This document shows positions 8,985 to 32,425 of a stretch of DNA of 64,000 bases, piece after piece. The position numbers and the translations under genes are program-made. The notes under the pieces were generated by a model that saw nothing but the letters and a program-made list of their open reading frames with translations, was not told the origin of the DNA and made no database searches. Source of the DNA: Lactifluus volemus (taxonomy: Eukaryota; Basidiomycota; Agaricomycetes; Russulales; Russulaceae); NCBI GenBank assembly GCA_022376515.1, contig WTXI01000137.1, forward strand, positions 34,723 through 98,722, read 5' to 3'. Positions within the stretch are counted from its first letter, which is position 1. Each line of letters begins with the position of its first letter.

Positions 8985-9227
8985 TGTTATTTGGGCTACT
9001 GTAGTGTCAGCCCAACGCTTCTTTGTATATTTGCCTTCCTTATTTAGTATATGCTTAGTCAGGCTTGCCTTTACTGCAGTGGATGGAATTCTGGGGACTT
9101 CAGTCTCATTCTCTCCACTGCAGGTCAGTTGTTATCATTGTCTTTGGTCAATATAGTCTCATTCTCTCCACTGCAGTCCCCTTGGTCCTCTGTGACTCAA
9201 GGGCCCTTCACAGCTCCAGTTAAAACA
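8985..9227 (+). repeat. Copia 5' LTR
   Basis: It is 243 bp, begins TGTTATTTGG and ends CCAGTTAAAACA. It contains an internal imperfect duplication of a phrase like 'tctcattctctccactgca'. The same LTR is found at 14,019-14,261 and, antisense, at 11,289-11,531 and 18,064-18,306; a shorter version is split around the large hAT element. Confidence 0.95.
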
Positions 9228-9239
9228 GGTTATGGGCCC
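9228..9239 (+). promoter_or_regulatory. Primer binding site matching the anticodon arm of initiator tRNA-Met
   Basis: The twelve bases after the LTR, GGTTATGGGCCC, are the complement of the anticodon region of eukaryotic initiator tRNA-Met (GGGCCCATAACC, with CAT as the anticodon) and not of a tRNA 3' end. Drosophila copia is known to prime from such an internally cleaved half tRNA. Seen: the match. Inferred: the priming mode. Confidence 0.75.
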
Positions 9240-9367
9240 TGCCCTGCATCAATAGACGCCTTTCACTCCCATTTGAACGCTTCCACTCGTTTTTACTCCT
9301 CTCTGCCTCTTACTCTCTCAAAATCACTTAAAAACATCCTTTTCATCCTCCTACACCTTCCTACACC

Positions 9368-9664
9368 ATGTCCTCTACCAAGGAATCCTCCATTTCCTCC
9401 ATTTCTCCCCTCACAAGCGAAAACTATCGACTTTGGGCTGATGACATCAAGTCCTGGCTTCAACTCAATGGTCTCTGGCGTCTTGTTTCAGGCCAGGAGA
9501 AGAAACCAGCTCCAAAACCCGAGGTCAGAGACTCCCAGGGCCAAGTCATCGCCCCTGCTGTTGCTGTGGATGAGGACAAGTTGGAGAGATGGGAGATTAA
9601 GGCTGAGAGGGCTGCTGGTGCGCTGAAGACTGCTATGACTCATGGATGTCAAGGTGCTCATTAG
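9368..9664 (+). pseudogene. Copia gag, N-terminal part before the frameshift
   Basis: The frame starts at the first good ATG after the leader (MSSTKESSISS...). It encodes the N-terminal gag region of fungal and plant Copia elements, with the 'LTSENYRLWADDIKSWL' phrase that opens such gags. It runs into a stop at 9,664. Around 9,645 the reading moves to the next frame ('VKVLIRDCEDDP'); one extra G in the run ACTCATGGATG explains the shift. The downstream ATG at 9,642 is therefore an internal codon and not a real start. Confidence 0.85.
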
Positions 9665-11288: not shown

Positions 11289-11531
11289 TGTTTTAACTGG
11301 AGCTGTGAAGGGCCCTTGAGTCACAGAGGACCAAGGGGACTGCAGTGGAGAGAATGAGACTATATTGACCAAAGACAATGATAACAACTGACCTGCAGTG
11401 GAGAGAATGAGACTGAAGTCCCCAAAACTCCGTCCACTGCAGTAAAGGCAAGCCTGACTAAGCATATACTAAATAAGGAAGGTAAATAGTCACAGAAACG
11501 TTGGGCTGACACTACAGTAGCCTAAATAACA
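11289..11531 (-). mobile_element. Antisense solo Copia LTR inside integrase
   Basis: This is a complete 243-bp LTR in reverse orientation (TGTTTTAACTGG to AAATAACA). It is flanked by the direct repeat CTGAG (11,284-11,288 and 11,532-11,536), so it is an independent insertion reduced to a solo LTR. LTR plus duplication is 248 bp, which accounts exactly for the frame change between the two halves of integrase. Confidence 0.95.
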
Positions 11532-11536
11532 CTGAG

Positions 11537-13993
11537 AGAGCTAATAGGACGATGGAGGAGGGCATTATCTCTATGCTTCATGAGTCTGGCATGCCACCAT
11601 CTTTCTGGGGAGAGGCCTTGGCTTCATTCATTCATATCAGCAACAGGATCACCACTTCTACTCTCTCTGATTCCACTCCTCACCAGGCATTCCTTGGGTC
11701 CAAGCCAGATGTCTCTAGACTCCGAGTTTGGGGCTGCACAGCTTATGTTCTCATTCAGAGGGACAAGCGTCCACTTGGCAGCCTTGGAGTGCACATGGAG
11801 AAGTGTGTCTTCATTGGATACCCTGATGGCTACAAGGCTTGGAAGTTCTACAATCCAGTGACCAAGAAGGTGATCATCTCAGAGAGAGCTGACTTTGATG
11901 AACGCTTTTTCATGCTTCAGAAGCAATCTACTGCTTTCATCCCACCCCCTCGCCTCAATTCCCTTCTGGAGGCTCCTACCCCTCTTGTTGCGCTTCCTGA
12001 GCTGCTCCCTGACGCCCGTAGTGATTCTGAGCTCTCACAGACGCCAGCTCATGGGGGAGATGCGTCTACTTCATCTGATCTGCCTTCAGTTCGCCCTCAG
12101 ACACCTCCATCTGCTCCCTTCTACACTGCTGAGCCAGACTCCGATCCTTCACCTTCCTCATCACACCATCCATCTCCTAGCACTCCTTTCTCGTCCATTT
12201 CACTTCCAATCAGTCCATCTCCTTCACCAGCACCTTCAGACACTCTTCCCTCACGCCCTCAGCGCCTCAGACGTCCCAGGGAGGAGTGGTTAGCTGAGCA
12301 ATGGACAGTCCCACAGCGCTACAGACAGCACAGAGAGCCTACTCCGACCATTCCATCTAGTGATGAAGAGGAGGAATCATCTGATGATCCCCTTGACCTC
12401 CTGAACGCCCATGGAGCCTCTGTAGCTGAGCCCCCTTCCTATAAGCTCTCTCAGCGACGCTCTGACGCAGATCTGTGGCACAAAGCTTGTGAAGAAGAGA
12501 TGGAGGCCCACAGCGTCAATGGCACTTGGGAAGTTGTCAAGTCGCCCCCTGGGAAGCGTGCAATAGGCTCCAGATGGTTCTTTAAGGTCAAGTACAATGC
12601 TGATGGCTCCCTTGAACGCTACAAGGCGAGATTGGTCGCAAAAGGCTACTCCCAGCGCCCTGGCTTTGACTTCAAGGAGACATTTGCCCCCACTGTTCAC
12701 TATTCCACCATCAGAATCATCCTTGCCATTGCTGCCTTGGAGGACCTTGAGCTCCGTTCTGTGGACATCTCTCACGCTTATCTGAATGGCACTCTTGAGG
12801 AGGAGATCTACATGCAGCAGCCTGAGGGATTTGAGGTTGGTGGACCAGACCATGTGTGTAGGTTGAGGAAGTCATTGTATGGGTTGAAGCAAGCTGGTCG
12901 AGTTTGGAACCAGACCCTCTACTCTGTGCTCAAGTCTATGGGCTTCCAACGCGTCCAGTCCGACCATGGACTGTATATCTACCTCAGAGGCGATGTGCGC
13001 ATCCTAATGCCTGTCTTTGTGGATGATATCACCCTGGCTTGCAAAGATGGTGCCCAGATTGACTCAGTGATTCAGGAGCTGTCTTCTCACTTCAAACTCC
13101 GTGATCTGGGAGCCACTACTCAGCTCCTGGGCATGGAGATTCACAGAGACCACTCCAAACATTCCCTTTCCCTCTCTCAGAGCCAATTCATTGCCAACCT
13201 CCTCCAGGAGCATGGTCTGCATGATTGTAAGCCTGTCTCCACTCCTCTCAACCCTGGATCACGCCTTTCCACCTCCATGTCCCCTCAGAGCGATGCAGAA
13301 GCTGCTGAGATGCGGCAACTCCCCTATATCTCCATTGTCAGGTCCCTCATGTATCTGGCTGTCACAACAAGGCCAGACATTGCCTACTCTGCCGGAGTTC
13401 TTGCCAGATTCAACTCCAATCCTGGTCTTCAGCACTGGCAAGCTGTCAAGCATGTTTTGCGCTATCTCAAGGGCACAATGGACTACAAGCTCGTCTATCA
13501 GCCTTCTGACAGTTCAGAGCCCTTCATCACTTACTCTGATTCGGACCATGGAGGCAATCCTGACAATGGCAAGTCCACTGGCGGGTTTGTGGTCAAGATT
13601 GGCACTGGTGCAGTCTCCTGGAGCTCTAAGCTTCAGGCACTTGCTCTGTCCACCACTGAAGCAGAGCATATTGCTACTGTTGAGGCCGGAAAGGAGATCC
13701 TTTGGATGCATCAGTTCATGGGGGAGCTTGGATACTTGATCTGTGGACCATCATTGCTCAGGATGGACAATCAGAGCACCATTGCTGTGAGCAAGAACCC
13801 AGAGCATCACAGCAAGATGAAGCATCTTTCTCTTCGCTTATTTTGGTTGAGAGATGCTGTTCAGGACGGTTTTATTACACCCACATTTGTTTCTACTTCT
13901 GACATGGCTGCTGATATCTTCACAAAGGCCTTAGATTGCTTCAAAGTACATAGGTGCATTTCTATGCTTGGATTGACTTCTAATTCACATTAG
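11537..13993 (+). pseudogene. Copia integrase C-terminus, reverse transcriptase and RNase H
   Basis: The frame resumes directly after the target duplication with 'RANRTMEEGI', the phrase that normally follows 'NGVAE' in Copia integrases. It continues through the GKGY-like 'GCTAYVLIQRDKR' region, a long Ser/Pro-rich linker (about 12,000-12,350), reverse transcriptase ('KARLVAKGYSQ', 'SLYGLKQAGRVW', catalytic 'VFVDD' at about 13,010-13,030) and RNase H ('TYSDSDHGG', 'ALSTTEAEHIA'). It ends at 13,993. The ATG at 11,552 is an internal Met. It is uninterrupted over about 820 codons, so the copy is recent. Confidence 0.92.
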
Positions 13994-14011
13994 AACCTGT
14001 TGTACTGACAT

Positions 14012-14018
14012 GGGGGAG
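14012..14018 (+). promoter_or_regulatory. Copia polypurine tract
   Basis: The purine run GGGGGAG lies directly before the 3' LTR, where plus-strand DNA synthesis is primed in LTR retrotransposons. The same run precedes the 5' LTR (about 8,978-8,984) as part of the orphan tail. Confidence 0.7.
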
Positions 14019-14261
14019 TGTTATTTGGGCTACTGTAGTGTCAGCCCAACGCTTCTTTGACTGTTTTCCTTCCTTATTTAGTATATGCTTAGTCAGGCTT
14101 GCCTTTACTGCAGTGGACGGAGTTTTGGGGACTTCAGTCTCATTCTCTCCACTGCAGGTCAGTTGTTATCATTGTCTTTGGTCAATATAGTCTCATTCTC
14201 TCCACTGCAGTCCCCTTGGTCCTCTGTGACTCAAGGGCCCTTCACAGCTCCAGTTAAAACA
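14019..14261 (+). repeat. Copia 3' LTR
   Basis: It is 243 bp and nearly identical to the 5' LTR. Bases to its right (GACCC...) belong to Gypsy-1 integrase and pair with the GGGTC at 18,307, not with the left flank of this Copia element. This marks an inversion breakpoint within or at the LTR. Confidence 0.95.
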
Positions 14262-15122
14262 GACCCCTGTTTCACTTTCAACTTCTCTCATACCATTTGT
14301 AAAGACACAGGAATCCACCAAAATCTATCTACCGCATTCCACCCACAAACCGATGGATAGACAGAGTGGATGAACACATGGGTTGAACAGTATTTATGAC
14401 CATGGACCAGTAACCAACCCCACAACTGGGCACAACTACTCCCCATTGCAGAGTTTGCCCATAATTCATGGAAACATGATGTAGCACAAAAATCCCCCCA
14501 TGAACTTCTCACTGGAACACACACCCAAATCAACATACAATTGATCAAGAAAAATGTTTCTGCAGCAATCAATTGACTCCAGGAACTCACAGAAGCCAGA
14601 TGGTCAGCACAAGAATGACTACAAGTGATACAAAAGGCTAAAGATGATAAGATACTGCAAAACCCACAAGGCAAGACAGCAAAAAGGCTTGAACAAGGTG
14701 ACCAAGTATGGCTAGAAGGGAAAAATCTATCAATCAAGGGCACACAAAAACTCATGCCCAAAAGATATGGACCCTTCACAATCACAGAAGAAGTGATGCC
14801 AGTGGTGTTTCATCTAGACCTCCCAGAATCAATGAAAGTTCACAATGTTTTCCATATCGATCTTCTCTCACCCTATAAGGAAACAGATGCTTATGGCACA
14901 CTGTTTACACAACCACCCCTGATCATTGATGAGAGTGAAGAAGAGTATGAGATTGATGCAATCCTGAATGTAAAGAAACAAAAGGGTAGAGGAGGTGGGC
15001 TCCAATACCTTGTTCATTGGAAAGGATACCCAAACTCTGACAACACATGGGTCAAACACAAAGACCTAAATGCCCCTGAACTTCTCAAAGAATACTATCA
15101 TAACTCCACTATGGCTAGATGA
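14262..15122 (+). pseudogene. Gypsy-1 integrase C-terminal half and chromodomain (inverted segment)
   Basis: Conceptual translation gives the end of a Gypsy integrase core ('GIHQNLSTAFHPQTDG', with stop codons following), the 'EFAHNSW' and 'LLTG' phrases, the linker 'GDQVWLEGKNL' and 'KRYGPF', and a chromodomain ('EEYEIDAIL', 'LQYLVHWKGYPNSDNTW', about 14,940-15,060). The last 166 codons (14,625-15,122) are open; the part before is broken by in-frame stops. The rest of Gypsy-1 lies on the opposite strand at 18,307-18,534 and 32,426-38,100, because this block was inverted. Confidence 0.88.
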
Positions 15123-18534: not shown

Positions 18535-18558
18535 TGTTATTTGGGCTACTGTAGTGTT
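18535..18558 (+). repeat. Left piece of a solo Copia LTR split by the large hAT element
   Basis: The first 24 bases of the LTR end with GTAGTGTT, the left copy of the hAT target duplication. The LTR resumes after 32,259 and ends at 32,425. The split LTR has its own 5-bp duplication TCACA (18,530-18,534 and 32,426-32,430), so it was a solo LTR in Gypsy-1 before the hAT element arrived. Confidence 0.93.
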
Positions 18559-18690
18559 TAGTGTTGCCACGGCTCGGCTCGGAGCTGCTCCGGAGCTGCT
18601 CTGAGCCGAGTCGTGAGCCAAGCTGAGCCGATTGATGGCTCAATCAGGAAAACCGCTCACGAGCGGCTCGTGAGCCGGCTCAGAACCCAT
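18559..18690. repeat. Left terminal inverted repeat and GAGCCG array of the large hAT
   Basis: The TIR covers about 18,559-18,582. It is followed by many GAGCC/GGCTC motifs in both orientations up to about 18,690. Such subterminal motif clusters are the usual binding sites of hAT transposases; binding here is inferred. Confidence 0.85.
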
Positions 18691-19259
18691 TTTGGTTGCC
18701 ATATATGGTGCTAAATTACGAGTAGAGTCATTTGCTGGCTGCACGGCGCGCGCTGCCGCCTCATTGCGTTCCTCGGAACTACATCATCATCGTCTGATAG
18801 CTCCGCGTGACCTTCCTTCCCTCATAGTCACCATAGGGTAGGCTCTGTGCTTTCTGGTCCTCACTCTCCCAGTCCCTTCTCGCGAACAGGTCAATCAATA
18901 CCGACCTTCACCGCCACATTAGTACTACTGGCGACACTCTGTTTGCTGTGTACCTGGGTCTTTTTCTGATGAGGAGTGGAGCTTGTGTTCTTGTGAACCA
19001 TCTTCTTTCTCAGTTGTACCCTCCTCGGAGGCACCTTGTGGATCTCTCTTCCAACACTAGACCTGTATGTTGGTTACTCCCTCTTCTACCCTACTGATTT
19101 GATCCCCGCTTTCAGAGAGGACCACCCAATGCTGTGTATACCAAAGTCATTTTCTCAACTCCAAGATCTGAACCATCTCATCAAGAAATATTGCGATATA
19201 TCCTTTCCGCATCCTTATCTCCTATGTCCTCACTTACCTCTTGTAAGTTGTCCCACCCT

Positions 19260-20200
19260 GCCTACGCCCATCGTCAAATGTGAACTGCGGTGCGACATGG
19301 ACACCTGGGCGGCCTCGCTGGACATCGTAGTGGACCCACCTCCCCAATCGATTTTCTGCCTTCGTCGACACCGCTTGTCATCTGGGGGAGGGGGTCTCTG
19401 GCTTACGCTGTTACATGATGCCGTCCTTGCCGGTGAGGGACACCTCATGGCGATCGTACGGCGTGGTCCCGGTCGCGAATGTGGCGTCGTCATGCTCAAC
19501 GGCTCCAAGGTCTCCGTGGATGTCGAGGAACTCCCCGAGGTGGAAATCACGTCACTCAGCAAACAAAAGCGCATCAAGCCGCCACGGATCCCGCTTGATC
19601 AGCCGCCCGTGCTTGGTGCCATTCGTCGGCGGCACAGGGATTGGAACGGAGAGACCGAGGAGCCAAGCGGAGATTCTCGCTCGCCGCTAAGTCCAACCAA
19701 GGTGGTGGATGAGAGCGGTAGGAATTCGACGTGGTTGACGTGATTCCGAGGCTCCGTAGACGATATTTCATGCAGGCGATGGGGCAAGCCGCCACTTTGA
19801 CTCAGCAGGCCGTCGCTGCTATCTCTCCCTCTTCAACCGGGGCCCTTCCTCTGAATTTCCCCTACAATACGCACTCAACGTGTTGCAGTATCTGCAAGCT
19901 GCACTCGCGATCGTCGGATCCCGTCTCGGACAGTTGGACGTTCATCTCCGAAAAGGGCTTCCCGCTGCACCGTAAGCTCGCGCTGGAGATTTCGGCCTCA
20001 TTGCCGGTTTATAGGGGCGAGAGGGTAATCGAGGGTATCTCTGCGGAGGAGATCGTGGTGGTGGTGACGAGCTATGATGCGCGGACCCGATGGGACGAGC
20101 ACTTCGTTGGTGTTCATATGCTCGAGGTCTTTGCAGGTGCGGGAGGAGCCCACATGGCATTCACAATGAGCAAGGTGGGCTTCCCGTTCCGCGACCGTGG
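19260..20200 (+). pseudogene. START-like domain gene fragment (cargo)
   Basis: The plus-strand frame at 19,300-19,740 reads 'DIVVDPPPQSIFCLRRHRL', 'VSVDVEELPEVEITSL' and an 'IRRRHRDWN' tail. After frame slips it continues at 19,930-20,200 with 'WTFISEKGFPLHRKLALEIS', 'ERVIEGISAEEIV', 'YDARTRWDEHF' and 'SKVGFPFRDRGF'. That series fits the start of a START-type lipid-binding fold in fungal proteins. The first half has no domain I recognise. Frames change at about 19,740 and 19,860, and the homology ends abruptly at about 20,200, where TVP38-like sequence begins, so it is a fragment joined to another fragment. Confidence 0.6.
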
Positions 20201-20912
20201 ATTCTGTTCTGCTTTCACTCCTTGATCCTTCTGGTAGCCTTCAAGCACTCTCCTTACCGGGATCGATGTACCTTTCCATCCTCGGCGGTGCCGTCTGGGG
20301 TGTTGCCTGCGCCTTACCATTGGCGTGTGCCTGTGTTGCTACTGGCGCAACGCTGTGTTTTTTTATCTTCGCAGCGCTCGGGCCCGCGCTTCTCACTCTT
20401 CCTTCCTTCCAGTCCCAGCTCCTTCAGGGATCAGCGCGCAACGCACTAACCTCATTCCATTCCTCATCGTCCTTTGCATTGTGCCTCTACCTCCTCACTG
20501 GGTTCTCAATGTCCTCGCGCCCCACCTCGGCATTGGTCTCATCCCTTTTTGGTGTAGCACCTTTCTCGGGATTTTCGGCATCACAGTTATCCACACATCC
20601 ATCGGTGGTGGGTTGGATGAGATGACGTCCGCTGCCGACTTTCACCTCACCTCATGGCGCAACTTTCTCACACTTGCTGCCGTTGTCGTCGGGGCGATGA
20701 TCCCGGTCGGCATCTGATACGTTTTTTCCCGGGAAGTGGCAGACGTAGGGGATGAAGAACCCCTTGTGAGGCTTGATGGTGAGGATGATGTGATTCTAGC
20801 GCAAGGTGCACCATTATCACCGGTGAAGAACAAGCAGGTCCGGAAACCATTGGTAATCAATGAAGGGGACCTTTCTGGCGATGAAACAGGGGATGAATCG
20901 GATAACATGTGA
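20201..20912 (+). pseudogene. TVP38/TMEM64 (VTT-domain) membrane protein fragment (cargo)
   Basis: Translation gives 'LQALSLPGSMYLSILGGAVW', 'VATGATLC' and, in the next frame, 'NLIPFLIVLCIVPLPPHWVL', 'LGIGLIPFW', 'TFLGIFGITVIHTSIGGG' and 'LDEMTSAADFHLTSWRNF'. These are hallmarks of fungal TVP38-like Golgi membrane proteins with the SNARE-associated/VTT domain. There is a frame change at about 20,430-20,460 and a stop at 20,716-20,718 (TGA, probably from CGA), after which the same frame continues with an acidic tail to a stop at 20,910-20,912. It is a recognisable 3' half of a gene, non-functional, joined to the START-like piece on the left. Confidence 0.8.
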
Positions 20913-21403
20913 TCCTTGAGGTGGGCCCTGCGCTGATCATCAAGAACAAGGATGTTGGGCCCCCTTGCAGTCCCTTTCACCACCGCGCAACCTCTGGATC
21001 ATCATCATCAAGAAGAGTCTCGAGATTTGCCCTAATTTTCGTTCACCTTTGCTGATGAGCTATGTATGTAAATCTACGGCCCTTTCGCAGCGCATACGGC
21101 CCTTTGTTTGTTCTGGTACCTGTGGGTTGCCCTTCGGTAATGCAGCCATCGTTGTAAGCCTTTTTGATGCAGCTGCACCTCGCAAGGGAGCTGCAATTGA
21201 GGGAATGGCACTGGCACAAGGATTGCGAGATGTCTTGAGCTTGTCATGTAAGGTTTTATGAGGCTTCAGTTGATTCGCAGCTCAGGCTTGTGTTTGTGAA
21301 CTTGAGTTTATCTGCCAGTGGCCCAAGGGCGAGTATCTCGTTAACCCATTCAGTGGGTGTCAGCCAGTCTGAGGAGTGTGAATCAAAGCTGTGGCAGTCT
21401 TAT
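20913..21403. other. Unassigned sequence between cargo and transposase
   Basis: A plus-strand frame (20,965-21,261) contains 'RKGAAIEGMALAQGLRDV' but no domain I recognise. It probably includes the 3' untranslated region of the transposase, which ends at 21,404 on the minus strand. Confidence 0.3.
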
Positions 21404-24400
21404 TCAATCATACAGATCATGAAAAAACGTATGTAGATCTTCAACAGGATTTCCTTCTTCCCTTTCCTCAAGCTCTGCTAACTCCTCATCTCTATCAAAG
21501 CCACTGGTGAAGTTTAACCCATTGCCTTGCTTCGATGTGAACTTGAGAAGTTGTAAGGCCTCCATCATTCTTGGGCCCAACTTGCTTCTCCTATCAGTGG
21601 TTGTTTCTTTGCTGGAGGAGAAAACCCTTTCACAAGGAACTAAGGAAGCTTGGATTGGAAGTACATCCATGGCAAGCTTGAATAGTGTTGGAAAATTATC
21701 TTCATTCTCCTAATAACAATATAAGTACTTTTAATAAGTGTAAGATAGGGAAAATAAGATACTTACCTGCCAAAAAGCAATAACATCAACATTCTTTCTT
21801 CGTGGAATACCAAGATACTTGTCCACTTCCTCTTCCAAGGTGAGACCTTGTGATTCAAAGTCATCAAAATCATCCATCTCAAGGATCTCATAGGCTCTGT
21901 CAGTATATGAAGTCTGAGCACCATGAGGGGGAGGGGGAGCCCTTGGATCAGATTCTAATTCTGGGGCTTGATAGTAAGGATAAAGCTAGTTATAGGTTAT
22001 AAATTTATAAGGTGGTAGTTATGAAACTAAGAACTTACAGCATCAAGAAGGGTTTGCCTTACTAGCTGCATAGAGCGATGCTGAGGTTTAGACCACCAGC
22101 GCTTTGCCGCTGGATTTAGAACTATACCAAGGGTTAATACTGCTCACAAATAATGATAATGGCTTACATAGAGCTAAGGAATAGGCTGAAATGTCATCAA
22201 TTTCTTCCCTATACTCTTCAAGCTTGTCAATAGCAGCTTGGATAATATTATAGCCATCCAAAGAGGCCTTCTCTTGATGGCTTTCAAGCCTCTTAATCAG
22301 ATACTCAAAAGCTGGAAGGGTTCTCCAGAGTGTCGGAGTCTTCTCAGCAGATAACACCTGCTGAAATGCATGTGGAATCTAGGCAATGAAAAATTAACAT
22401 ACTTTTACAAAGTGATAAAGTGATAAGACTTACTTCAAGGATGTTTTTCACCATAATGAGCTGATTCCAATCTGCAAAGGATAGCTGAAAACTTGATTCA
22501 GCCTCTGTCAGAAACCGAGTGATAGCCTAAATTATTAGTTGAATGGTATTAAAGACAAATAGACATTTGAGATTACTTCTCTTAGTTCCAAGGCCTGGTC
22601 AATCATTAGAAAAGTTGAAGACCACCTTGTTGGAACATCTCGAATAAGCTTTAAGGGTTCCTTCTTGGGGTCCTTCAAGTTGTTCAAGTTATTCAAGGTG
22701 TTCTCAAAGCCATTGCGCCTGAGTGAAGAGGCACGGATCTAAGATGATAAAATGAGCAGTGTTAAAAAAGATAGGAAGAAAGAAAGGAAATGAAATGAAA
22801 AAGCGAAATTTTCAAGAAAGAAAATTGGGGAGAGCATATCAGCAAGCCTGAGGGGTAGTAGGGCACATCCCAGATTTCGAACATTGTGCCCAAGCCCAGC
22901 TCCCAGCCCAAGTGCATCGTCGCTGTGGCAGCAGTGGTGGGGATGGCATGCAAGTGAGCATGCCCGCTGATCGCCACTCGGGCAGAGATGGTGTTTGACA
23001 ACTGTCACAACTCGCAAGAAGACCCATGAAACAATGACCAAGCCAGACATCCTTTGGCGTTAGTGAAGCATTTCGTGCATGGTGTCGCGCTTGGTGTGAA
23101 GACAGGAAGCTGGAGTGTGGTGCTGTGGCTTGTCGTGATCGTGTGTTGCTGAATGCCACAGCCCAGGAGTCGAGAACGCCAAAGATGGTGGCCCAAGGGG
23201 CAATTGCACCGCTCGAGCTTGCAGCTGGTAGTACGCTTCCTGGAATAACCTCCCCGCTACTTGACACCAAAACACGCCAAGTTGCGGCACTGGCGCCCCT
23301 TTGCCAACCTAGCAAGCATATCATATAAAGTGATTGACGAATCCGAGTCACGCCGTTGACCAGACAGCCCATTGCAAGAACGCTGGCAGTTTCCCGGCCT
23401 GCGATTCTGCGATTTCCAGCCAACTGGGCCACTGTGATTCGGAGGGGGCTGACCCCCAGAACTGAAGTGCACGCTCGGGTGACAACACAGGAAAAAGTAT
23501 GCCAATGAAGGGCAATGTCTTTGTGAGGCTCTTGTGTGGTCTCTCTGGTTCTGTACGGGTGGTAGATGAGCGGAAGTGCTGAGACCGGTACTAATGGGTA
23601 CTTGCAAGAATGATATCTTCCTCCTGCTGGAATTTAGGTAGCTCTGACGAGGCATACGAAATAACGGATCATCACATCCGCCTTTCTCCCATCTCCGCAT
23701 GCATCGAGTTTGACCGCACCCTCGAACCTTCAGTGCTGACAACGCCTTCATTATCCACTTTCCCAGTGCAGTGAGCACGGCATTAATGGGATTCGCAACC
23801 GTAGGGTGGGAAGCAGCAGTCTGGAGCTGTGAAACGGCAGGAGCAGTGGCGGCGGGTACTATCATAGCTTATGTCTCATAAACTTTCGCTACACTTGAAT
23901 TGCCCATCTGTGCACATACGACAGACGATCATTTCGGACATGGGCGAGCTACACCTCGAAATTTACGTTGAGTGGATGAAGCGCGAGTACGGTGTCACCT
24001 GCACTACTGGCCACCCACAAGTTGCGTTCCGAGAAACTGTCATGGAGCGTGCCGAGTTTTCGTACACCCATAAGAAGCAGACTGGCGGCGTGGGGCAATA
24101 TGCGCGGGTCATTGGACACATTGAACCGATGGAGACAGACACCAAATCTGGGAAGGATGTCGCATTTGAAAGCGTCGTCATGGGCGGGAATGTGCCGACC
24201 AACTACATTCCGGCGGTCGAGGAGGGCTTCTATGACGAGAAGGGCACGCTGTCCGGTAACCGGATCTCTGGCGTGCGCATGGTGTTGCGTGATGGCACAT
24301 TCCACGCCGTCGATTCATCCGAATTTGCGTTCCGTCTAGCCTCTATCGGTGTGTTCCGCGAGGCATACCTCAAAACGACGCCGGTGATTCTCGAGCCAAT

Positions 24401-27400
24401 CATGACGGTGGAAGTCGTTGCTCCCGTTGAGTTCCAGAGTGCGTCTGCTCTCCCCATCTGTGGTAAATATGCTTGTTGATTGGTAAAAAGGTGCGGTAAT
24501 TGGCAGATTGAATGCTCGTCGGGGGACCATCATCGACAGCGAAGTGCGCGAGGACGAGTTCACGGCTATGGGCGGAGGTCACGCTGAATGACATATTTGG
24601 ATATTCGAGTCAGCTCCGTGGGGCGACACAAGGAAAGGGCGAATTCAGCATCTGGCAGTTGACTTTTATTACACAAGATGGCGCAGCGATTGAAGTTTCG
24701 CAGCAGCTGAAGTGGAGGGCGATGGTGAGAACCGACCTGAGGGTGTTCCCTTCTCCTGGTGGTGGGCGTGATTCCATGAGGCGGGATTTGACAAATGTTC
24801 TTCCACACATTAGACGCCCATTGTTGTGATGCCGTGCTTCTCAATCACCTCGCAGAATTTGACCATGATTAGGGGCACTTCTACACCATCACGGGCCATT
24901 GGTTCCGCAAGGTCGACACTAAACAAGGCGGAGTTGTGAATGACTACTATTAGGGGTGTTCGCATTGTGGGGTACCGGGTTCGTGCGGTCAACATGTTGC
25001 GGTAAGGGAGGTTGCTTGATCATTGTCAGCTTCAACTGTACATGACACAGCATGTGCACAACTTACAAAGCCTTCATATTTGGGTCCTGTGCGGCGGGGA
25101 CCTCTTTGCATCCCGCCATAGGCATACACGTGGTTGTGCATAGACCTTAAAGTTGGAATTGTTATTTTTGGACTCGATGGTAGCTTTGAGCCTGGGTCCT
25201 GCCACACCCAGACAATGTAGAAGCGCTGTGGTCATTTGTGACAGTTTTGCGCAACCGTGTCCCACTTTGGATGGCGCCGAACAGCGCACTGCGATCCCCG
25301 GTAGGAGCTGGAGTAACGAAAACAGGAGCTGGCGGGGCCAACGGAGCTGCAGGAGGAGCAGGAGGAGCCGCGGGGGCAGGTGGCGCAGGTGGCGACGGGG
25401 GTGGTGTGGGCGCAGACATCGCCGTCGGACTGGGAGTTTTAGACGCCACATTAGCACTCGCAGCGGACTGGGAGCGGGGTGGGCCGCCAGGTGGCGGGAG
25501 GATCGACCCGAAGAGCTGTCACGCAAGCCTGTCACGTGTGTCGCGCGAAGAGTTGAGCTCGTCTTCAGAGCTATCGTCGTCATCGTCTCTCTCATATGCC
25601 CACTCATCTTCGCTATCGCCTGGAGAAGTGTGGTACGAAGTCTTGACGGCCGGCGGCACCGGGCTTTTCGATGGAGGCGGGGGGACAGCTGCAGGCAGGG
25701 AAGGCGCTGGTGAAGTATATGGGTGCGGAGTTAGGGTTCAAGGCGGATGCTTCCTGGGGAGTGAGGGATCTTCAAAAGGGACGTGGAGTTACAAACCGGT
25801 ATAAGACGTACCCTTAAAGATACCATACTCTGTTTGATTCTGTCAAGAAAAAGGGGGATCCCGCACTGATAAAAGAGCAGATTGAGAAAAAAAAACAACC
25901 ATGATTGGAGTACGGAACTCACATTAAGTTCACATAGCACTCTGAGTACGCCTCATCAGAGCTAGGTTCCACGATCGCGACTTCGTTTTGGGTGGCAGAC
26001 GTGGCATCTGGCCGCTGAGCGGCAGGTGGTAAATTGTTGCGCCATCGGGCGGTTAGTGAAGGGGAAGGCGTGTTGCTAGGTCAGCTCCGGTGCTAGATCT
26101 AGGGAGAGGAGGAAGACTTGGAAGAAGGAGGGGACGGGGACTACAGTAGAATTTATAGAGGGAGGGGGGTTGGGGGCGAGAGTCATTGGGGAAGAGGTTG
26201 GGGTGGGAATCGGTTCAGAGAGGTGGAAAGTGGAGAAGACCGTGGCATGTCTACTCGTAAATGTGATCGTCGTTGTTGTACTTGCCTGTTCGATGTCGAT
26301 TTGGCAGAGCCCCCTCATGAACGCTGTCCGGAGGACTCTTCCGGCAGCCTCCCTGGCCACACACGAGATGTAGTAATCGTGCCAGCAGGAGGGGGACAAG
26401 GTAGAGGACCAAATGGCAGAGGGGATGGCGCAGGCGCAGATACGCAGGGAGGGGGACCCAGAATGGGTGTAGCCACTCGTGCAGTGACGCCATGGAGAGG
26501 GTGGGACTTATGAGTTGATGGTGGAAGGGGAAATGTCAGAGACGTGCTAAGCCCGGGGAGTCTGGGGATGCACGAGGCAGCGGCCACGGGCGGATCTGGA
26601 AAGCTCATTGTTATACGGAAAGACGTCAAAGATGAACATTTCGAGTTTCATCCCATTCGGCTTGGTCGGTTTGACGGATGTACCATCTGGCAGGGCCACG
26701 TGCGGAATCTTCTTGCGAGCGATGTGAAAGGCGAGGTTGTCCTTGAACGAGGCGACGCTCCGCAAAAATGTGGTGGTGTGAAAGTGGTTCGCAATGTTAC
26801 CCGCGCGGAAGAGGAGCTCGCCCGTGTTGGGGTCGCGCACATCGGCTTGCACGGCAGATATCTCAGAGTATTCGACCACGCTGAATTTGGAGCTGCGTTG
26901 CGCAACGACGCCGACGGATTCGGTAGGGTAGGCTTTGGGGACTACTTTGGCGGCACAGTCGGCTTGCTTGCTGATGCCATAACCGACAAAGACCAGGTCG
27001 GCAACGCGGACGAGACAATTGTCGATGCAATAGGCGTGCACGTAGAGAACCTTGCGTGATTCGAGATCGCTCAGGACCGACCTTGTTTTGTCGGTCAGTG
27101 AGAGAGGGGTGAGAAGAGCCCCTTTTCGTGCCGCGCAAGGAGACTTTCTGGGTAGCCCGGTAGCGTGGGGACTGGTGGGGTAGCTCGGTAGCATGGGGGC
27201 TCGAATGCAGCATAGCGTCTGAGAAGTAGCTCCTGTGTGAGGCTTATCGTACAACGATGAGGCCACGAGAATTACCAGACAGTTAGAGGATACTCACAGA
27301 TAGATATGCCCCACAAGTCACCCTCAGCAATGGCAATACCACATAGTCGAAGATGAGTAGTAGAACCATGACACTACTAGCGTCGGACAACAAACCCGGG

Positions 27401-29652
27401 CCTGCATTGGCACAATGACTTGGAGGTTGTCAAGGTAATTGATCTCATAGAAACGAAGACATTTCACATGCTTCGATTTCGCGCTTATAGGGACAAGGTT
27501 TCCAGCTGAGATATCGCAACAATATAGACAAGGACAAATAGGCTCAGACTCAGAGTGATCTTGTTGAGACGAGTCACGATGGGCTGCAGAACACAAGGCA
27601 ATGCAACACCACAATGCCTCTCAAATTCGAGGTGTTGCCAGTCAAAATTCTCCGAGTACCAGGGAGTAAGATGCCATCTGAGTCTCCATAGAGCCATAGA
27701 AAGCCCACATAGGAAAGAAAATCGAAACAAAAACTGAGAAAAATATGACAAGTAAGATATAACCTACATGCTGAATGGTACCTTGTAACTTTTTGACTGA
27801 GTCTTGATCTGGGCCCAACCCAGCTGCTTGGCCCAATATTTCCTTGCATGCAAGGTTGACAATGTGTGGAAAACATCTATAAGAGTAAATCAGCAACATT
27901 ATGCACAAAAAAATAAGGCTAACCGTATGCGCCGCTGTCTGCTAGAGAACTCAACCCTACGCCCTTCAAGAGCTACTTGCAATGCAGCAACAAATGTGTC
28001 ATTATTTGCTGCATTATCCATGGTAATCCATCCAATCTATATAAGTTATGCAGGTTTTACCATTTCCTGAAAAAATAAGCAAAGGAGATATACCTTGTTA
28101 GCTAGATCTAGGCGATCTATGATGAAGAGAAACTCTTCTGCTAAGCGCTCTCCTGTATGTGATCCTGGAACAAGCAGAAAGCCAACTAGATCAACATGAA
28201 GAGTAAGCTTTCTCTGTCCCTGAGTGAGCTTGCTCTCCAGCCAGTGTGCAGTAACAGCCATATATGGCTTAAGGTCAGGATCAGTCCAGCAGTCCATGGT
28301 AAAGGAAATCTTCCCAGCAGAGCGCTGATAAAAAATGGTTAAGTATAATCAAGTCCTTTCACCAACATTGGTCACATGCCTGCATTTGAGCTGAGAGAAA
28401 TTTAAAGTGCTCAGCATGTAGCTCTAGAATGCGGTTGCTCATTGTTGTACGGTGGGGAATATCACGTTCTTGCATATTCTCCTGCAGCAAGAGCATAAGG
28501 TCCCGAAATTGTCGGGACTCCACAAGGCTAATAGGCTACAAAATGGTTATTAAAAAAATGTTTTAAAAAATATAAAAAAAGACCAACTAGGTCATTAGCA
28601 ACAATAAATTCTACCAGGGCATCCACAAATCGCTCTCGGGAAAATTGAGGCCTAGGTTGATCCTGAGACACAGGCTCAACACCATAGAAAGCAGCAATAG
28701 CTGCCAGGGCACTTTTTGCTGTGATAGGAATGCCACGAGCTTTACACTGAGCAGACCAATCCTTGGGATGTATTGTGTACAAATGCCTTCGCAGGGTCCC
28801 TACTGAGGTTGACATCACATAAGGAATGACCTTGTACTGAGCCTTGGTCACTCTAATGGACCTAATATTTTTAAGCATTTACACAAAAAAAAAAATAGTA
28901 ATCACTCACAAGCAAAATTTACATACTCGGTGTTCTTTCTGCTCGAAAAATGTATAAACATCACGGGCAGTGTGACGTCCTCTCTTATTGCCTGCAGGCC
29001 CAGACTCAGACTCAGAAGCAAGAGGCTCTGCGTGTTGTTGATGCCTACTGTGGGCCCGGGTAGGTGAAGCGGGATAAGGGTCTACAGGCCTGGGGGCATT
29101 TTGGTGTCTTTGTGCATGAGAATGTACTAATGGCTCAGCCTGAGGTGTCTCTTCCGAGTCAGAAATCTCAGAATCTGTTAGAGTAAGAGAGGTCCTAAGA
29201 TCGAAGGTCTCCGGAGAATGTTGTGCCTGTGCTGGAGTACCAGAAGATGTGCCGCTGGCAGTACTGAGAAATGGATCATCTTGACTTCCCTCAAGATTGT
29301 GCTGCCCAAGGTTGCCATCTTCATCTGTACTAGTAACCACAGGATTGAAAGCTACATGGCGCTGGGCCAGCACAGGCCTCTGAGTTGAAGTTGCTGGGAA
29401 AGGCTGGGATGGACCCGATGGCTGACTCGGAGCTGGCAATGTGGACTCAGCCTGAGAAAATTGAGCTAATAAACAATTAATTGGTGACTCGGATTCAATA
29501 TCAAGCTACATACGATCAACCGGAAAACTCGTTTGAAGAGCTCCCCCAGGCAGGTGAACGTCCTTGGGGGTAGATCGTGTTTGCCGGGTTCGTTTTGTGC
29601 CCCGTTTCTTAGGGGAGGGTGTCTTCGGGTGCTGTCTTTTGTTACCTGGCAT
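21404..29652 (-). CDS. hAT-family transposase, 13 exons, apparently intact (883 aa)
   Basis: Exons on the minus strand: 29652-29514, 29465-28910, 28861-28588, 28535-28380, 28324-28094, 28036-27924, 27876-27768, 22738-22577, 22526-22434, 22378-22168, 22121-22039, 21985-21767, 21709-21404. All splice phases agree, giving 2,652 nt and 883 residues without a stop. Introns are 46-57 bp except the seventh (5,029 bp). Intron 4 uses a GC donor. Domains: a disordered Ser/Pro-rich N-terminus, a BED zinc finger (Cys 227 and 230, His 257 and 262), an RNase H-like core with 'MDCWTDP' (Asp 386) and 'MDNAANND' (Asp 459), the 'CFPH' motif (491-494), 'TRWSS' (Trp 565), and the C-terminal dimerisation region with 'CERVFS' (Glu 809). 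It should bind the element's ends and move it by cut and paste. The ATG at 29,652 was chosen because it opens the basic N-terminus; earlier in-frame ATGs exist. Confidence 0.85.
22840..23924. other. GC-rich captured sequence, unassigned
   Basis: This differs in composition from the AT-rich transposase exons to its left, so it is probably captured. A minus-strand frame (22,762-23,001) reads '[20 protein letters not shown]', which I cannot assign to a family. No other coherent domain was found. Confidence 0.35.
23925..24649 (+). pseudogene. MEF1: Mitochondrial elongation factor G fragment (cargo)
   Basis: The translation '[20 protein letters not shown]', '[20 protein letters not shown]' and '[15 protein letters not shown]' is that of mitochondrial EF-G1, the translocase of mitochondrial translation, from late domain III through domain IV. 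It continues into domain V with '[17 protein letters not shown]' and '[18 protein letters not shown]'. A 52-bp intron (GTGCGTCT...AAAAAG, about 24,436-24,487) is retained. One base too many occurs near 24,571 ('atgGgcggaggtc'), breaking the frame, and the GTPase half of the gene is absent. It lies antisense to the transposase, inside its large intron. It is a DNA-level capture and not functional. Confidence 0.88.
24810..24940 (-). pseudogene. RhoGAP-domain fragment (cargo)
   Basis: The minus strand reads '[20 protein letters not shown]' followed by '[18 protein letters not shown]'. That is the opening of a RhoGAP domain as in fungal F-BAR/RhoGAP proteins of the Rgd1 type ('FGVDLAEQ...VP.I..KC..AIE..G', then normally 'YRLSG'). 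Only about 40 residues remain; the catalytic arginine segment is not present. It lies next to the WH2 fragment in the same orientation, but they come from different gene families. Confidence 0.7.
25160..25790 (-). pseudogene. WH2-domain, PAN1/verprolin-like fragment (cargo)
   Basis: The minus strand encodes an acidic stretch ('[20 protein letters not shown]'), a long Pro/Ala-rich run and then '[20 protein letters not shown]', an actin-binding WH2 motif. This order is typical of the C-terminus of the endocytic actin regulator PAN1; verprolin is an alternative. A stop interrupts the frame before the Pro-rich part ('RLA*QLFG', about 25,520). Downstream the homology ends at what looks like an intron boundary. 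The piece is truncated at both sides. Confidence 0.65.
25791..26615. other. Captured sequence, unassigned
   Basis: It lies between the WH2 fragment and the pyrophosphorylase fragment. Frames on both strands are long because of G-rich composition, but none shows a recognisable domain. Part of it may be intronic sequence taken with the pyrophosphorylase gene. Confidence 0.3.
26616..27085 (-). pseudogene. UAP1: UDP-N-acetylglucosamine pyrophosphorylase fragment (cargo)
   Basis: The minus-strand translation includes '[20 protein letters not shown]', '[20 protein letters not shown]', 'ESVGVVAQ', '[13 protein letters not shown]' and '[18 protein letters not shown]'. This is the central catalytic region of the enzyme that makes UDP-GlcNAc for chitin and glycoprotein synthesis. 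The homology ends exactly at a candidate splice donor after 'FDVFP' (GTATAAC), which again points to capture of genomic DNA. The uridyl-binding N-terminus and the C-terminus are missing. The frame itself is open over about 155 codons, so the capture is fairly recent. Confidence 0.88.
27086..27767. other. Right edge of the large intron
   Basis: No recognisable gene. The short repeat 'ggtagcccggtagc' / 'gggtagctcggtagc' occurs near 27,150-27,190. The last 480 bases become AT-rich and lead to the splice donor at 27,767. Confidence 0.3.
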
Positions 29653-29884
29653 TCTCAAAGGTTTCACTGGTATGAATCGACGTTGATGACCTTGAGTGAT
29701 GGTCGTTTTCGAGTGGGGGGCCAACTGCCTTACATCGATCTCGCACTGGCACATGGACATGCCACATCTGATAACACTTTGCGGCGGCATTTGCGCCCTC
29801 TCGCACATTAACAATGTACTCCTACTATTCTAATTTGACATCACTTCTCTGCACACCTCAACACCAAGGAGAAGCAAAGACACC

Positions 29885-29991
29885 AACTTTGCAGGATGCA
29901 CGACATGGGACTCCCCTAGATCTGGCATCGACAACGGGGCACTTCGATATCGTGCACTTACTGGTTGAGCACAGCGTGGAAGTATTGCCCT
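29885..29991 (+). pseudogene. Ankyrin-repeat fragment (cargo)
   Basis: One frame reads 'ARHGTPLDLASTTGHFDIVH' followed by 'LLVEHSVEVLP' and a stop: one ankyrin repeat ('G.TPL..A...GH.DIV..L'). It lies upstream of the transposase start and diverges from it. It is too short to name a parent gene. Confidence 0.7.
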
Positions 29992-31310
29992 AAACAGTGA
30001 TGCGCCTGGGGCCTGGGCTTACCTGGAAACCTAGAAACGATGACCCATTCAACGCAGATGGACGCAATGCCGGTCTGGAATGTCCACCAACGTCAGCTAA
30101 CGTTTGTTTGTTTTTGTTGTCAGCCTATCGGGTAGAGGGGGGTGGTAAGAGTTAGGAGAAATGCTTACATCCAGCAAAGGGCATGCCCGCGATGCCGTTC
30201 GAGACGTGCGCCGTTGCAATAGATCCTGTCTCGGATCATGAGGGAGAAATGTATTATAAAATAATGAGATGACACACCAGTTGACTAGACCACCGAAATC
30301 ATCTCGGCAAGAGAGCTAAACGTTTGAGGAGTGGGCATCGATGACGAGCGTGCAACGTGAGCATCACCAATGACAGGTGGGGGTTGTATGGCGGGTGGTC
30401 AAAGGGTGGGAGGGGTGAGACTGGGTAAGTTTGAGCATGAACCGCTTCAGGGGGGGGGGGGGGGATTGGGTACTCACAACATGAACTTCTCCCATGGGCG
30501 ACGATTGCAGCGAGGTGGTTGCCACTACGGTCGAGAGGCAGCTGATAAGCACTGGTCAGGTGCCGCCAACCAATCAGAGCTGACTGACCGCTATCCACCA
30601 ATCAGAGCTGCCCGACAGCGCCTGCAGCCCACTTTGGAAGTTCAGGGGGCGAGTAGCCTCTCTAAGTCTTCCGACTCACTGGCAGGGTCGACTTGAATGA
30701 CGGATTCGTGGATCTGTATGCTCGGAGTCCGACATTGTAGTACTTGTAAGATGGGCACTGGCAAGGAGCTGAGTGTCTCCTATTTAAGGCCTGGCGACTG
30801 CGACGATCGCCCCCGAGTCGTGACATCATAGAACGTACCCAAGCGGCGAGGCCACGCATCCAAGGCCTGGGTGGCAACGTCGTCATCCACATGCACGAAG
30901 GAACAAACGCAGGGAGACACGTACCAAGACGACGATTCCACGATCCAAGCATCTGTCGTTACGAACGACAAACCAATAAAGAACAAGACGAGAGACCGAG
31001 ACAAAGTCGAGGAAAGAGATGATGCGTGAAAGGATTGTGTAGGTCATTCGTCACTGCAAACGATGAGACGGAAGAAAGAACCGAACCTGAACGGCGATCC
31101 ATCGAGCAAGACACGCCGCACATGCACCAACGACAACGAGAACGTAACTGCGAGGCAAGAAACGAAAGAAGGAACAGTTGGGAATGGAGAACAACGCAGA
31201 CAGGAATGTAGGAAGGGGCATAGTTGGCAGTCGATAAACGAGAACAAGGAGAGGGGGAACATGGAGGTTCTGACGTCGAAGACGAAGTCGCTGGCTTCGA
31301 AGTTCGTCAG
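29992..31310. other. Unassigned element interior with a 15-G run
   Basis: No recognisable gene. There is an uninterrupted run of 15 G at 30,450-30,464 (a candidate quadruplex or an assembly-sensitive homopolymer). Purine-rich sequence with many 'gaacgagaacg'-like repeats lies at about 30,990-31,260. GC content is higher than in the transposase exons. Confidence 0.35.
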
Positions 31311-31900
31311 CTACCTGTGAGGAAGTATGGGGTGACTTAGCGATACCCAGAATGACGTCCGGAGGTTGGGCAGAAGGGGGGTGGATGAGGGCCTTGAAAA
31401 CTGGGGCGCGGCACGGGCTATCCAGCCAGTCCAGTTCCCAGGTTGAGAAGGCTTCGCGGCGTGCGATGTCTCGGAGAGCGGGGACGGAGGGGGCAGAGAG
31501 AGCGACTTGACCCTGGGCGGCCATGACTGCCTCGACGGCAATGTCCGAGCGAAGAGGGTGGAGACATCGAGTCGCAGAGGGCCTGACAGGCAGCGGCATT
31601 AACATGGTGTTCAGTGATCTGGCAATAAGAGAGGACCATGGGGTCAGCAGTGAATATGGAGACGGACGAAGAGGGAGAGTTTGGAAGAGTGTCCTTTGCC
31701 AAGTCTGCTGCCAGGACTAGGGTTTGGAAGGCGGCATCCCGCATTGTGGCGTTGTGACCCAGGACAAGAGAGCGGTGACCAATTTCTTTCCCTTCAAAGA
31801 AAGCCACGCAGGCGCCTGTCCAGGAGGGGTCTAAGCGGGCAGGGCTGGGGCCAAGGGCTCTGCAGTATATTGTGGTGAGGCCTTTGCTAGAGCGGTGGGC
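31311..31900 (-). pseudogene. Possible LINE RNase H/C-terminal relic (cargo)
   Basis: The minus strand encodes 'AFFEGKEIGHRSLVLGHNAT', 'AAFQTLVLAADLA' and 'SSSVSIFTADPMVL', resembling the RNase H part that follows reverse transcriptase in basidiomycete non-LTR retrotransposons. In the next frame come 'LRDIARREAFSTWELDWLDS' and 'FKALIHPPSAQPPD', similar to their C-terminal tails. At least one frameshift separates the two. Family recognition is from recalled motifs. Confidence 0.5.
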
Positions 31901-32129
31901 GCTTCGGCGATGCGATGTTTCCAGTCTGCCGTGGGGCCTGGATCAGGAATAGTGGACAGTCGGTCAGAGTGGGGGCCGCAACGGCGCCACGGGGCCTGGT
32001 TGAGGGTGGGGGGGCAGCGGCTGTCAATTCAGTCCTTCAGGAGGACATCAAGCCAGATTGAAGCCACGCTGCCATGCGGCCAATGCCAGCCATTGTCCAA
32101 ATTTGGTATATTTCCAGATTCGTCATGAA

Positions 32130-32251
32130 ACTGGTGCGAAGCCACGACTCGAGCGGCTCACTAGCAACTCGCTCAGGCTCGGCTCGCCCAAAATGGGTGA
32201 GCCGGTACGAGTCGAGGCGGAACCGAGCCGAGCCGAGCCGTGGCAACACTA
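32130..32251. repeat. Right terminal inverted repeat and GAGCCG array of the large hAT
   Basis: This is the reverse-oriented counterpart of the left end: CCGAGCCGTGGCAACACTA at the extreme right, preceded by repeated GAGCC/GGCTC motifs from about 32,150. The right copy of the target duplication GTAGTGTT follows at 32,252-32,259. Confidence 0.85.
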
Positions 32252-32425
32252 GTAGTGTTAGCCCAATGCTTCTTTGACTGTTTGCCTCCCTTATTTAGTA
32301 TATGCTTAGTCAGGCTTGCCTTTACTGCAGTGGACGGAGTTTTGGGGACTTCAGTCTCATTCTCTCCACTACAGTCCCCATGGTCCTCTGTGACTCAAGG
32401 GCCCTTCACAGCTCCAGTCAAAACA
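32252..32425 (+). repeat. Right piece of the split solo Copia LTR (short variant)
   Basis: The LTR resumes after the hAT target duplication and ends GTCAAAACA, followed by TCACA. Removing hAT and one target copy leaves an LTR of 190 bp and not 243; the missing 53 bp are one copy of the internal imperfect duplication. Confidence 0.9.

What the first reader, a model, noticed from the sequence alone, without database searches (positions are those of the whole stretch)
22739..27767. A transposase intron used as a cargo bay
Captured fragments of EF-G, RhoGAP, WH2 and UAP1 genes sit inside one 5,029-bp intron, while the other eleven introns are 46-57 bp. Exon phases on both sides match. Placing cargo in an intron would let the element grow without losing its transposase, provided the intron is still spliced.
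Basis: partly seen in the sequence, partly recalled or inferred. Interest (0 to 1): 0.9.

Follow-up and report, generated by a model that had tools for sequence, protein, structure and literature searches.

The report
Mushroom transposon hoards genes in intron
A 13.7-kb jumping gene in a milk-cap mushroom carries scraps of host genes, some nested in one another, on both sides of its transposase gene and inside one hugely swollen intron of it, yet the transposase is still fully readable, so a cut-and-paste element may be able to grow and shuffle host genes without giving up its own engine.

Summary
Window 18559-32251 is a 13,693-bp hAT transposon (24-bp perfect inverted ends, 8-bp target duplication), in a genome that is probably Lactifluus volemus. 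Thirteen minus-strand exons join into an open 883-codon transposase; eleven introns are 46-57 bp, intron 7 (27767-22739) is 5,029 bp. About 76% of it matches Nup192, EF-G, F-BAR/RhoGAP, WH2, UAP1 and one unnamed gene elsewhere in the genome. Three of these nest like Russian dolls, the innermost closest to its donor, without a target duplication at the edges. A sister element (C130) has a 7,449-bp intron 7 at the same place with a different load (fatty-acid-synthase alpha, MBOAT); 8 of 10 gene-bearing contigs compared are compact there, and four examined closely have an intron of about 49 bp. Cargo substitutions spread over codon positions while the transposase has no stop; this suggests that it stayed functional, hence was spliced, after the older cargo arrived. 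No RNA was available: splicing is inferred.

The parts
18559..32251 (.). hAT element, 13,693 bp
   Evidence: 24-bp perfect TIR TAGTGTTGCCACGGCTCGGCTCGG at both ends
18551..18558 (+). left target-site duplication GTAGTGTT
   Evidence: 40 listed matches of the host repeat run across the joined flanks at 91-99%
32252..32259 (+). right target-site duplication GTAGTGTT
27768..29652 (-). transposase exons 1-7 with introns 1-6 (47-57 bp)
22739..27767 (-). intron 7, 5,029 bp, donor GTAGGT, acceptor TTAG, phase 0
21417..22738 (-). transposase exons 8-13 with introns 8-12 (46-57 bp); hAT dimerisation domain at residues 771-838
   Evidence: Dimer_Tnp_hAT 7.7e-17
22937..23670 (-). Nup192-donor fragment, 85% to C607:226733-227482 (sense to the transposase)
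   Evidence: donor frames
23867..24651 (+). EF-G fragment with an intron, 94% to C290:41856-42645 (antisense to the transposase)
24745..24805 (-). outer doll, left piece (C331 donor, 86%); strand by the donor's long open frame
24805..25204 (-). middle doll, left piece: F-BAR/RhoGAP donor C190, 86%
25208..25736 (-). inner doll: WH2-protein donor C34, 95.7%
25740..26228 (-). middle doll, right piece: F-BAR/RhoGAP donor C190, 87%
26227..26548 (-). outer doll, right piece (C331 donor, 81%); strand by the donor's long open frame
26614..27119 (-). UAP1 fragment, 95% to C56 and C28
27587..27767 (-). native donor-side intron sequence shared with C86 (90.6%); about the first 80 nt also with C130
18931..21352 (.). 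left-flank cargo: C223 (76-83%) enclosing C113/C110 (90-95%) enclosing C190:43 kb (91%)
29896..31975 (.). right-flank mosaic (C423, C416, C73, C155, C174 and other matches)

Best explanation
This is a transposase-encoding hAT element of a family of giant hATs (12-24 kb) in (probably) Lactifluus volemus that keeps picking up copies of host genomic DNA. Shown: ends, TSD, open transposase, mosaic and nested cargo in the left flank and in intron 7 and a mosaic right flank, closest copies of the donors still present in the genome, an EF-G intron retained, no TSD at cargo edges, a sister element with a different load in the same intron. Inferred: each piece was copied in during faulty repair of a double-strand break inside the element (gap repair with template switching, or end joining with filler), at any site. 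Copies with cargo in an exon lose the transposase and are lost; copies with cargo in a flank or an intron survive. Once cargo is in, it is the largest non-coding target, so later cargo tends to land inside earlier cargo, giving the Russian dolls. Intron 7 thus became a second growth zone by chance plus selection for open exons, and the 5-kb intron is (or was until recently) spliced well enough to give transposase.
For: TIR and TSD; 40 listed matches of the host repeat running across the joined flanks; 883-codon open frame; hAT domain; mosaic with donors; nesting order against identity in the intron (outer 81-86%, middle 86-87%, inner 95.7%); nest in the left flank; no flanking direct repeat longer than 4 bases at 8 blocks examined (1,288 of 2,000 random draws give at least 3), while the hAT ends show 8-bp TSD and 24-bp TIR; 3-nt filler or 1-2-base overlap at the nested joins; cargo substitutions spread over codon positions 1/2/3 (EF-G 9/9/13, WH2 9/5/9, C190b 12/16/22, C331b 9/11/18, C331a 2/2/0; UAP1 5/5/16); simulated neutral decay of the transposase gives P(no stop) 0.07 at 3% and 1 of 600 at 9%; dN/dS 0.35 against C130 over 806 codons and 0 stops in the 12 of 13 C130 exons that matched; C130 intron 7 of 7,449 bp, with FAS-alpha and MBOAT; 8 of 10 other paired elements with perfect 8-bp TSD.
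Against: No RNA evidence. Fungi mostly have short introns: a survey gives means of 63 bp for Cryptococcus neoformans and 426-469 bp for its long extremes (PMC8476143, passages). Cargo age rests on divergence from donors in this assembly; if the true donors were diverged alleles or paralogues the time is overstated (UAP1 shows third-position excess, 16 of 26). At the divergence of the youngest cargo an open frame by luck is not excluded (P 0.05-0.07 at 3-4%, 0.21 at 2%, stops only). C130's gene is itself broken by an LTR element in exon 3, so it is no proof of present function. The left-flank nest order is not strictly monotonic (middle 90-95%, inner 91%). The C190 nest has a 6-base inverted run at its edges that 38 of 2,000 draws reach. 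The gap-repair step was not tested.
Confidence: 0.68

Rival explanations
1. Dead on arrival: cargo made the intron unspliceable and the transposase is now defunct; the exons are open only because too little time has passed, and the element moves, if at all, with transposase from compact relatives.
For: Youngest cargo is only 3.0-4.4% diverged at codon positions 1+2, where an open frame by luck has P of 0.05-0.07 counting stops only. Related transposase genes with compact introns exist in the genome.
Against: The oldest cargo in the same intron is 8.6-9.8% diverged at codon positions 1+2, where luck has P of about 1 in 600; two old pieces hold 11 indel events in alignments of 506 and 338 columns, against no break of the 883-codon frame. 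C130, with a 7.4-kb intron 7, also has 0 stops in the 12 of 13 exons that matched.
Confidence: 0.22
2. One nested transposon (a Helitron or another Pack-type element loaded with gene fragments) jumped into intron 7; the hAT itself did not capture anything.
For: Nested transposons occur here: an LTR element with TSD GGCAG in C130 exon 3, a 1.33-kb repeat with a 9-bp overlap inside the C130 intron. [quoted passage not shown]
Against: No flanking duplication beyond chance at 8 blocks examined; the load is a chain of separate and nested blocks of different divergence; host-gene mosaics lie in both flanks as well. Helitron ends (TC...CTRR) were not searched for.
Confidence: 0.08
3. Cargo is functional: sense-strand pieces are exonised into chimeric transposase-host proteins or regulate their donors.
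For: Five of six host donors in the window intron (all but EF-G) and both FAS-alpha and MBOAT in the C130 intron lie in the sense direction of the transposase; cargo of the C130 type recurs in the C501 and C1 elements.
Against: Substitutions in most pieces are spread over codon positions, and changes to stop codons occur in three of six alignments, as in unconstrained DNA; eight donors are too few to call the orientation bias significant.
Confidence: 0.07

Closest known systems
hAT superfamily (Ac/Tam3/hobo; Pfam Dimer_Tnp_hAT)
   Same: 8-bp TSD, short TIRs, transposase with hAT dimerisation domain
   Different: 13.7 kb against 4.6 kb for maize Ac (figure in an abstract seen); host-gene mosaic in both flanks and in an intron
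Maize Ds2 / Ds-l4 with captured gene fragments (PMC3260210, abstract and passages seen)
   Same: hAT ends around genomic gene fragments with introns retained; donors elsewhere in the genome; capture put down to break repair
   Different: Those are non-autonomous (2 Ds2 and 9 Ds-l4 elements with gene fragments); here the element encodes an open transposase, and cargo is nested and partly inside the transposase gene
Fungal hAT carrying histone H3 (Pyrenophora PMC3538342; Pseudocercospora PMC6710886; abstracts and passages seen)
   Same: Fungal hAT that carries a host sequence between its ends (in Pyrenophora together with a full-length transposase gene)
   Different: One gene, captured from a transcript without introns in Pseudocercospora, a separate reading frame in Pyrenophora; here many genes, DNA-level for EF-G (intron kept), nested, also in a transposase intron
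Pack-TYPE / Pack-hAT elements of plants (PMC8903248, passages seen)
   Same: Gene fragments between hAT ends
   Different: Defined as non-autonomous; this one has a transposase gene

Membership tests
hAT superfamily | 8-bp target-site duplication | tested here: met
   GTAGTGTT on both sides; 8 of 10 other paired elements perfect
hAT superfamily | short terminal inverted repeats | tested here: met
   24-bp perfect
hAT superfamily | transposase with C-terminal hAT dimerisation domain | tested here: met
   PF05699, 61.3 bits against cut-off 21.4; 12 homologues listed, most named as hAT or hypothetical proteins
hAT superfamily | catalytic DDE residues and activity | not tested
   no structure or alignment to a characterised transposase was made
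Pack-TYPE (Pack-hAT) | host gene fragments between TIRs | tested here: met
Pack-TYPE (Pack-hAT) | non-autonomous, no transposase gene | tested here: not met
   883-codon open transposase
Nested transposon in intron 7 | TSD/TIR at the edges of the load's blocks | tested here: not met
   8 blocks examined (6 in the intron, 2 in the left flank); no direct repeat over 4 bases; one 6-base inverted run that 38 of 2,000 draws reach
Helitron | 5' TC, 3' CTRR with hairpin, RepHel | not tested
   no Helitron-end search was made
Spliced intron | exon 7-8 junction in RNA | not testable with these tools
   no transcript data

The most novel reading that the evidence does not exclude
Intron 7 of this hAT lineage is a standing, long-lived cargo bay. 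It was already enlarged before the window and C130 lineages split (dS about 0.56) and has been emptied and refilled with different host genes since, while the transposase stayed under selection. The element would be a self-mobile gene shuffler that grows by nested capture inside its own gene, with splicing hiding the load from the protein.
Probability: 0.3. Interest if true: 0.8.

Novelty: new variant of a known kind. Interest (0 to 1): 0.6.

Why it matters
The gene-capturing cut-and-paste elements described in the plant papers that I saw (Pack-TYPE, Ds) are non-autonomous. Here the element with the open transposase carries the load, and the layering of older and younger donors records the order of capture. 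It offers a direct test of whether selection on exons alone decides where cargo can build up, of whether a fungal gene whose other introns are about 50 bp can splice a 5-kb one, and of how cut-and-paste elements duplicate host genes. At family level, nine of eleven elements whose two ends were checked (the window included) carry perfect 8-bp duplications; the eleven are 12-24 kb long, which is large for hAT as far as I recall.

Tried and rejected
Extra transposase exons inside the interval: rejected; the protein runs from exon 7 straight into exon 8 in 11 of 11 relatives' loci examined (four with a short intron there, seven without any). A few weak, scattered rows of that call (E 0.37-0.67) were not counted.

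C130 'intron 2 cargo': first looked like a second bay; the edges show an LTR retrotransposon in exon 3 with a 5-bp duplication GGCAG, so it is an ordinary nested insertion and is not counted as cargo.

Shared cargo between the window and C130 introns: the DNA comparison gave only six short matches (22-60 columns, E 0.009 to 0.38), and the many translated matches fall for the most part in repetitive proline-rich stretches; none is claimed.

Transposon signatures at cargo edges: no duplication beyond chance; one 6-base inverted run, told above.

Acceptor-side homology of the window and C130 introns beyond the last dozen bases: weak (14 of 1,000 Markov-resampled sequences reach it); the donor side is clear (0 of 1,000).

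An allelic empty site was not found: the 40 matches across the joined flanks are other copies of the repeat.

Literature: searches gave 0 papers. Searches (11 of 11 listed; 15 of 288; 11 of 11; 15 of 26; 12 of 118; 12 of 32; 15 of 46) showed no title or abstract start on host-gene cargo inside a transposase intron. That is a statement about those listings only (open-licence full texts).

Full report
WHAT IS THERE. The finding lies inside a hAT transposon, window 18559-32251, 13,693 bp, with a 24-bp perfect terminal inverted repeat and the 8-bp duplication GTAGTGTT. It sits in a copy of a repeat of about 245 bp that begins TG and ends CA and is flanked by TCACA on both sides (read; this copy is shorter inside), a solo LTR by its looks; two more copies bound a retroelement at about 8985-14263 (Copia-like by eye, not tested). 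Forty listed matches of that repeat run across the joined hAT flanks at 91-99% identity: they start 22-28 bases left of the join, because the hAT sits close to the repeat's left end. They are other copies, not the allele. The genome (62.4 Mb, 628 contigs) is most likely Lactifluus volemus: the UAP1 donor protein is 100% identical over 88% to a protein so named, on a contig of 107,593 bases, the length of contig C28 here.

TRANSPOSASE. On the minus strand 13 exons join to an open 883-codon frame with a hAT dimerisation domain (7.7e-17). The 12 homologues listed (7,992 candidates scored) bear names of Mycena, Pleurotus, Candolleomyces, Coprinellus, Tricholomella, Favolaschia and Rhizoctonia, Agaricomycetes as I recall. 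Eleven introns measure 46-57 bp; intron 7 measures 5,029 bp and falls between two codons. Intron 4 is GC-AG.

LOAD OF INTRON 7. Searching the same genome with the intron and realigning to the donors gives, from left to right: a Nup192-donor piece (85%), a short C101 piece (83%), an EF-G piece (94%) whose frame is broken by what reads as its intron, a short C362/C57 piece (80-83%), then a nest: an unnamed gene C331 (86% and 81%) split by an F-BAR/RhoGAP gene C190 (86% and 87%), itself split by a WH2-protein gene C34 (95.7%). Then follow a UAP1 piece (95%), a repeat (79-96%), and 181 bp of native intron (90.6% to C86). The pieces from Nup192, EF-G, C331, C190, C34 and UAP1 sum to 3,826 of 5,029 bp (intervals; a few bases overlap). 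At the nest's joins C190 lacks about 1 kb where C34 sits and C331 lacks 32 bp where C190 sits; joins show 3 nt of filler or a 1-2-base overlap. Eight blocks, six in the intron and two in the left flank, show no flanking direct repeat over 4 bases; one (the C190 nest) has a 6-base inverted run, which 38 of 2,000 random draws reach; the hAT ends themselves score 8 and 24. Closest copies of the donors are still in the genome, so the pieces were copied, not moved. Five of the six donors run in the sense of the transposase, EF-G against it.

FLANKS. The left flank is a nest too: C223 (76-83%) around C113/C110 (90-95%) around C190:43 kb (91%). The right flank is a mosaic of smaller matches. The intron is therefore not unique as a place for cargo.

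RELATIVES. One search listed 74 matches (51 of 254 candidates scored, so a lower bound). Of 10 contigs that I took from it because they have matches on both sides of the exon 7/8 boundary with introns in between, 8 are compact (192-543 bp of non-codon sequence in the whole stretch) and 2, the window and C130, are not. Contigs whose match runs through without an intron were left out of that count. In four relatives (C618, C589, C79, C76) the intron is at the same place, 49 bp in C618; in seven distant ones (C457, C120, C145, C344, C379, C202, C71) the frame runs on without an intron (C618 sequence). In C130 intron 7 is 7,449 bp and holds an MBOAT piece (8.5e-13), FAS-alpha ACP and helical domains (2.5e-56, 2.5e-50) and a further FAS-alpha piece (6.4e-117 to solved FAS alpha), mostly 96-98% identical to a FAS2-like locus on C589, plus a nested 1.33-kb repeat. 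Both run in the sense of the C130 transposase. Parts of that load recur in C501 and C1, inside TIR-bounded elements with their own, different 8-bp duplications, so elements with that load have moved; C501 and C1 gave no transposase exon matches at those places and may have moved in trans. A 20-bp TIR search (up to 2 mismatches) gave 73 places against 0 for the reversed control. Of 10 pairs that I picked from them, 8 have perfect 8-bp duplications, C11 has 7 of 8 bases, C589 has none; lengths are 12.3-24.3 kb. The other places were not examined, apart from one single end (C618).

DID THE TRANSPOSASE STAY FUNCTIONAL? Cargo substitutions against donors fall on codon positions 1/2/3 as 9/9/13 (EF-G), 9/5/9 (WH2), 12/16/22 (C190b), 9/11/18 (C331b), 2/2/0 (C331a) and 5/5/16 (UAP1) (frames are the donors' open frames): near what unconstrained DNA gives, UAP1 least so. 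Counting only positions 1+2 the divergence is 3.0% (UAP1), 4.0% (WH2) and 4.4% (EF-G) for the young pieces and 8.6-9.8% for C190b, C331b and C331a. A simulation with the observed spectrum (CpG sites change three times as often, 0.174 against 0.058) gives P(no stop in the transposase) of 0.21 at 2%, 0.07 at 3%, 0.05 at 4% and 1 of 600 at 9%. Indels are not in that figure and would lower it. Against C130, dN 0.197, dS 0.558, ratio 0.35 over 806 codons, with no stop in the 12 of 13 C130 exons that matched, some of them in part; C130's exon 3 is interrupted by an LTR element. My inference: after the older cargo had arrived the transposase still made protein, so the swollen intron was spliced. After the youngest cargo this is likely but not proven.

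WAS THE BAY OLD? About the first 80 bases of the window and C130 introns are alike (score 42; best of 1,000 Markov-resampled sequences 30). That is longer than the whole 49-bp intron of C618, so intron 7 was probably already longer than usual in their common ancestor, and I see no cargo that the two share today. The acceptor side gives little support (14 of 1,000).

MECHANISM. Best reading: faulty break repair copies host DNA into the element at any site, and selection removes copies hit in exons. The largest non-coding stretches, including earlier cargo, then collect later cargo, hence the nests. The intron needs no special property beyond being removable. The repair step is inferred by analogy with what the Ac/Ds paper mentions (PMC3260210, passages). 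Untested: splicing, transposition, exonisation.

NOVELTY. hAT gene capture is known in maize Ds (PMC3260210), Pack-hAT (PMC8903248) and two fungal histone cases (PMC3538342, PMC6710886), seen as abstracts or passages. A giant-transposon review has no occurrence of 'hAT' in its main text (PMC6431247, term count and passages). I found nothing on host cargo inside a transposase intron in the listings named under Tried and rejected. I therefore rate it a new variant of a known kind.

Noticed in passing
C130:28217-52483 (L050, L051, L046, L078): A 24,267-bp hAT with TSD ACCGAGAC whose exon 3 carries an LTR retrotransposon (TSD GGCAG) and whose intron 7 carries FAS2-like and MBOAT pieces.
   Followed up: partly
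window intron 7 and C130 intron 7: Seven of eight host donors in the two introns run in the sense direction of the transposase, only EF-G against it; too few to tell chance from a rule.
   Followed up: no
C607:735815-755010 and C619:80088-94979: Two further TIR- and TSD-bounded elements (19.2 and 14.9 kb) with a different end variant (TAGTGTTGTCA) also hold stretches matching the C130 FAS2 cargo: repeated capture or exchange of cargo between elements.
   Followed up: no
C612:99351-100274: A 94% match to window 18706-19639 that spans two joins of the left-flank nest, so the nest exists at a second place; no TIR of the list lies on C612.
   Followed up: no
window 8275-8936: Broken piece of the transposase gene (region of exons 2-4, 86-94% to the element in reverse orientation), the remains of a second copy next to the retroelement.
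   Followed up: no
cargo alignments of window intron 7: CpG sites in cargo changed three times as often as other sites (0.174 against 0.058) and the transposase has few CpG sites (98 of 2,652 bases), as expected if the element is methylated.
   Followed up: partly
C13:22671-22916 (L005): A hAT fragment that shares about 120 bp of acceptor-side intron 7 with C130 and then diverges; whether it is a cargo-free form or a truncation is unclear.
   Followed up: no
donor loci C190/C52, C56/C28, C331/C1, C110/C113: Donors often come as pairs with like identity on two contigs, as if both nuclei of a dikaryon or recent duplicates were assembled apart.
   Followed up: no
C86:25301-27300 (L053): A decayed close relative (90.6% in the donor-side intron) with an internal inversion around exons 6-7.
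   Followed up: no
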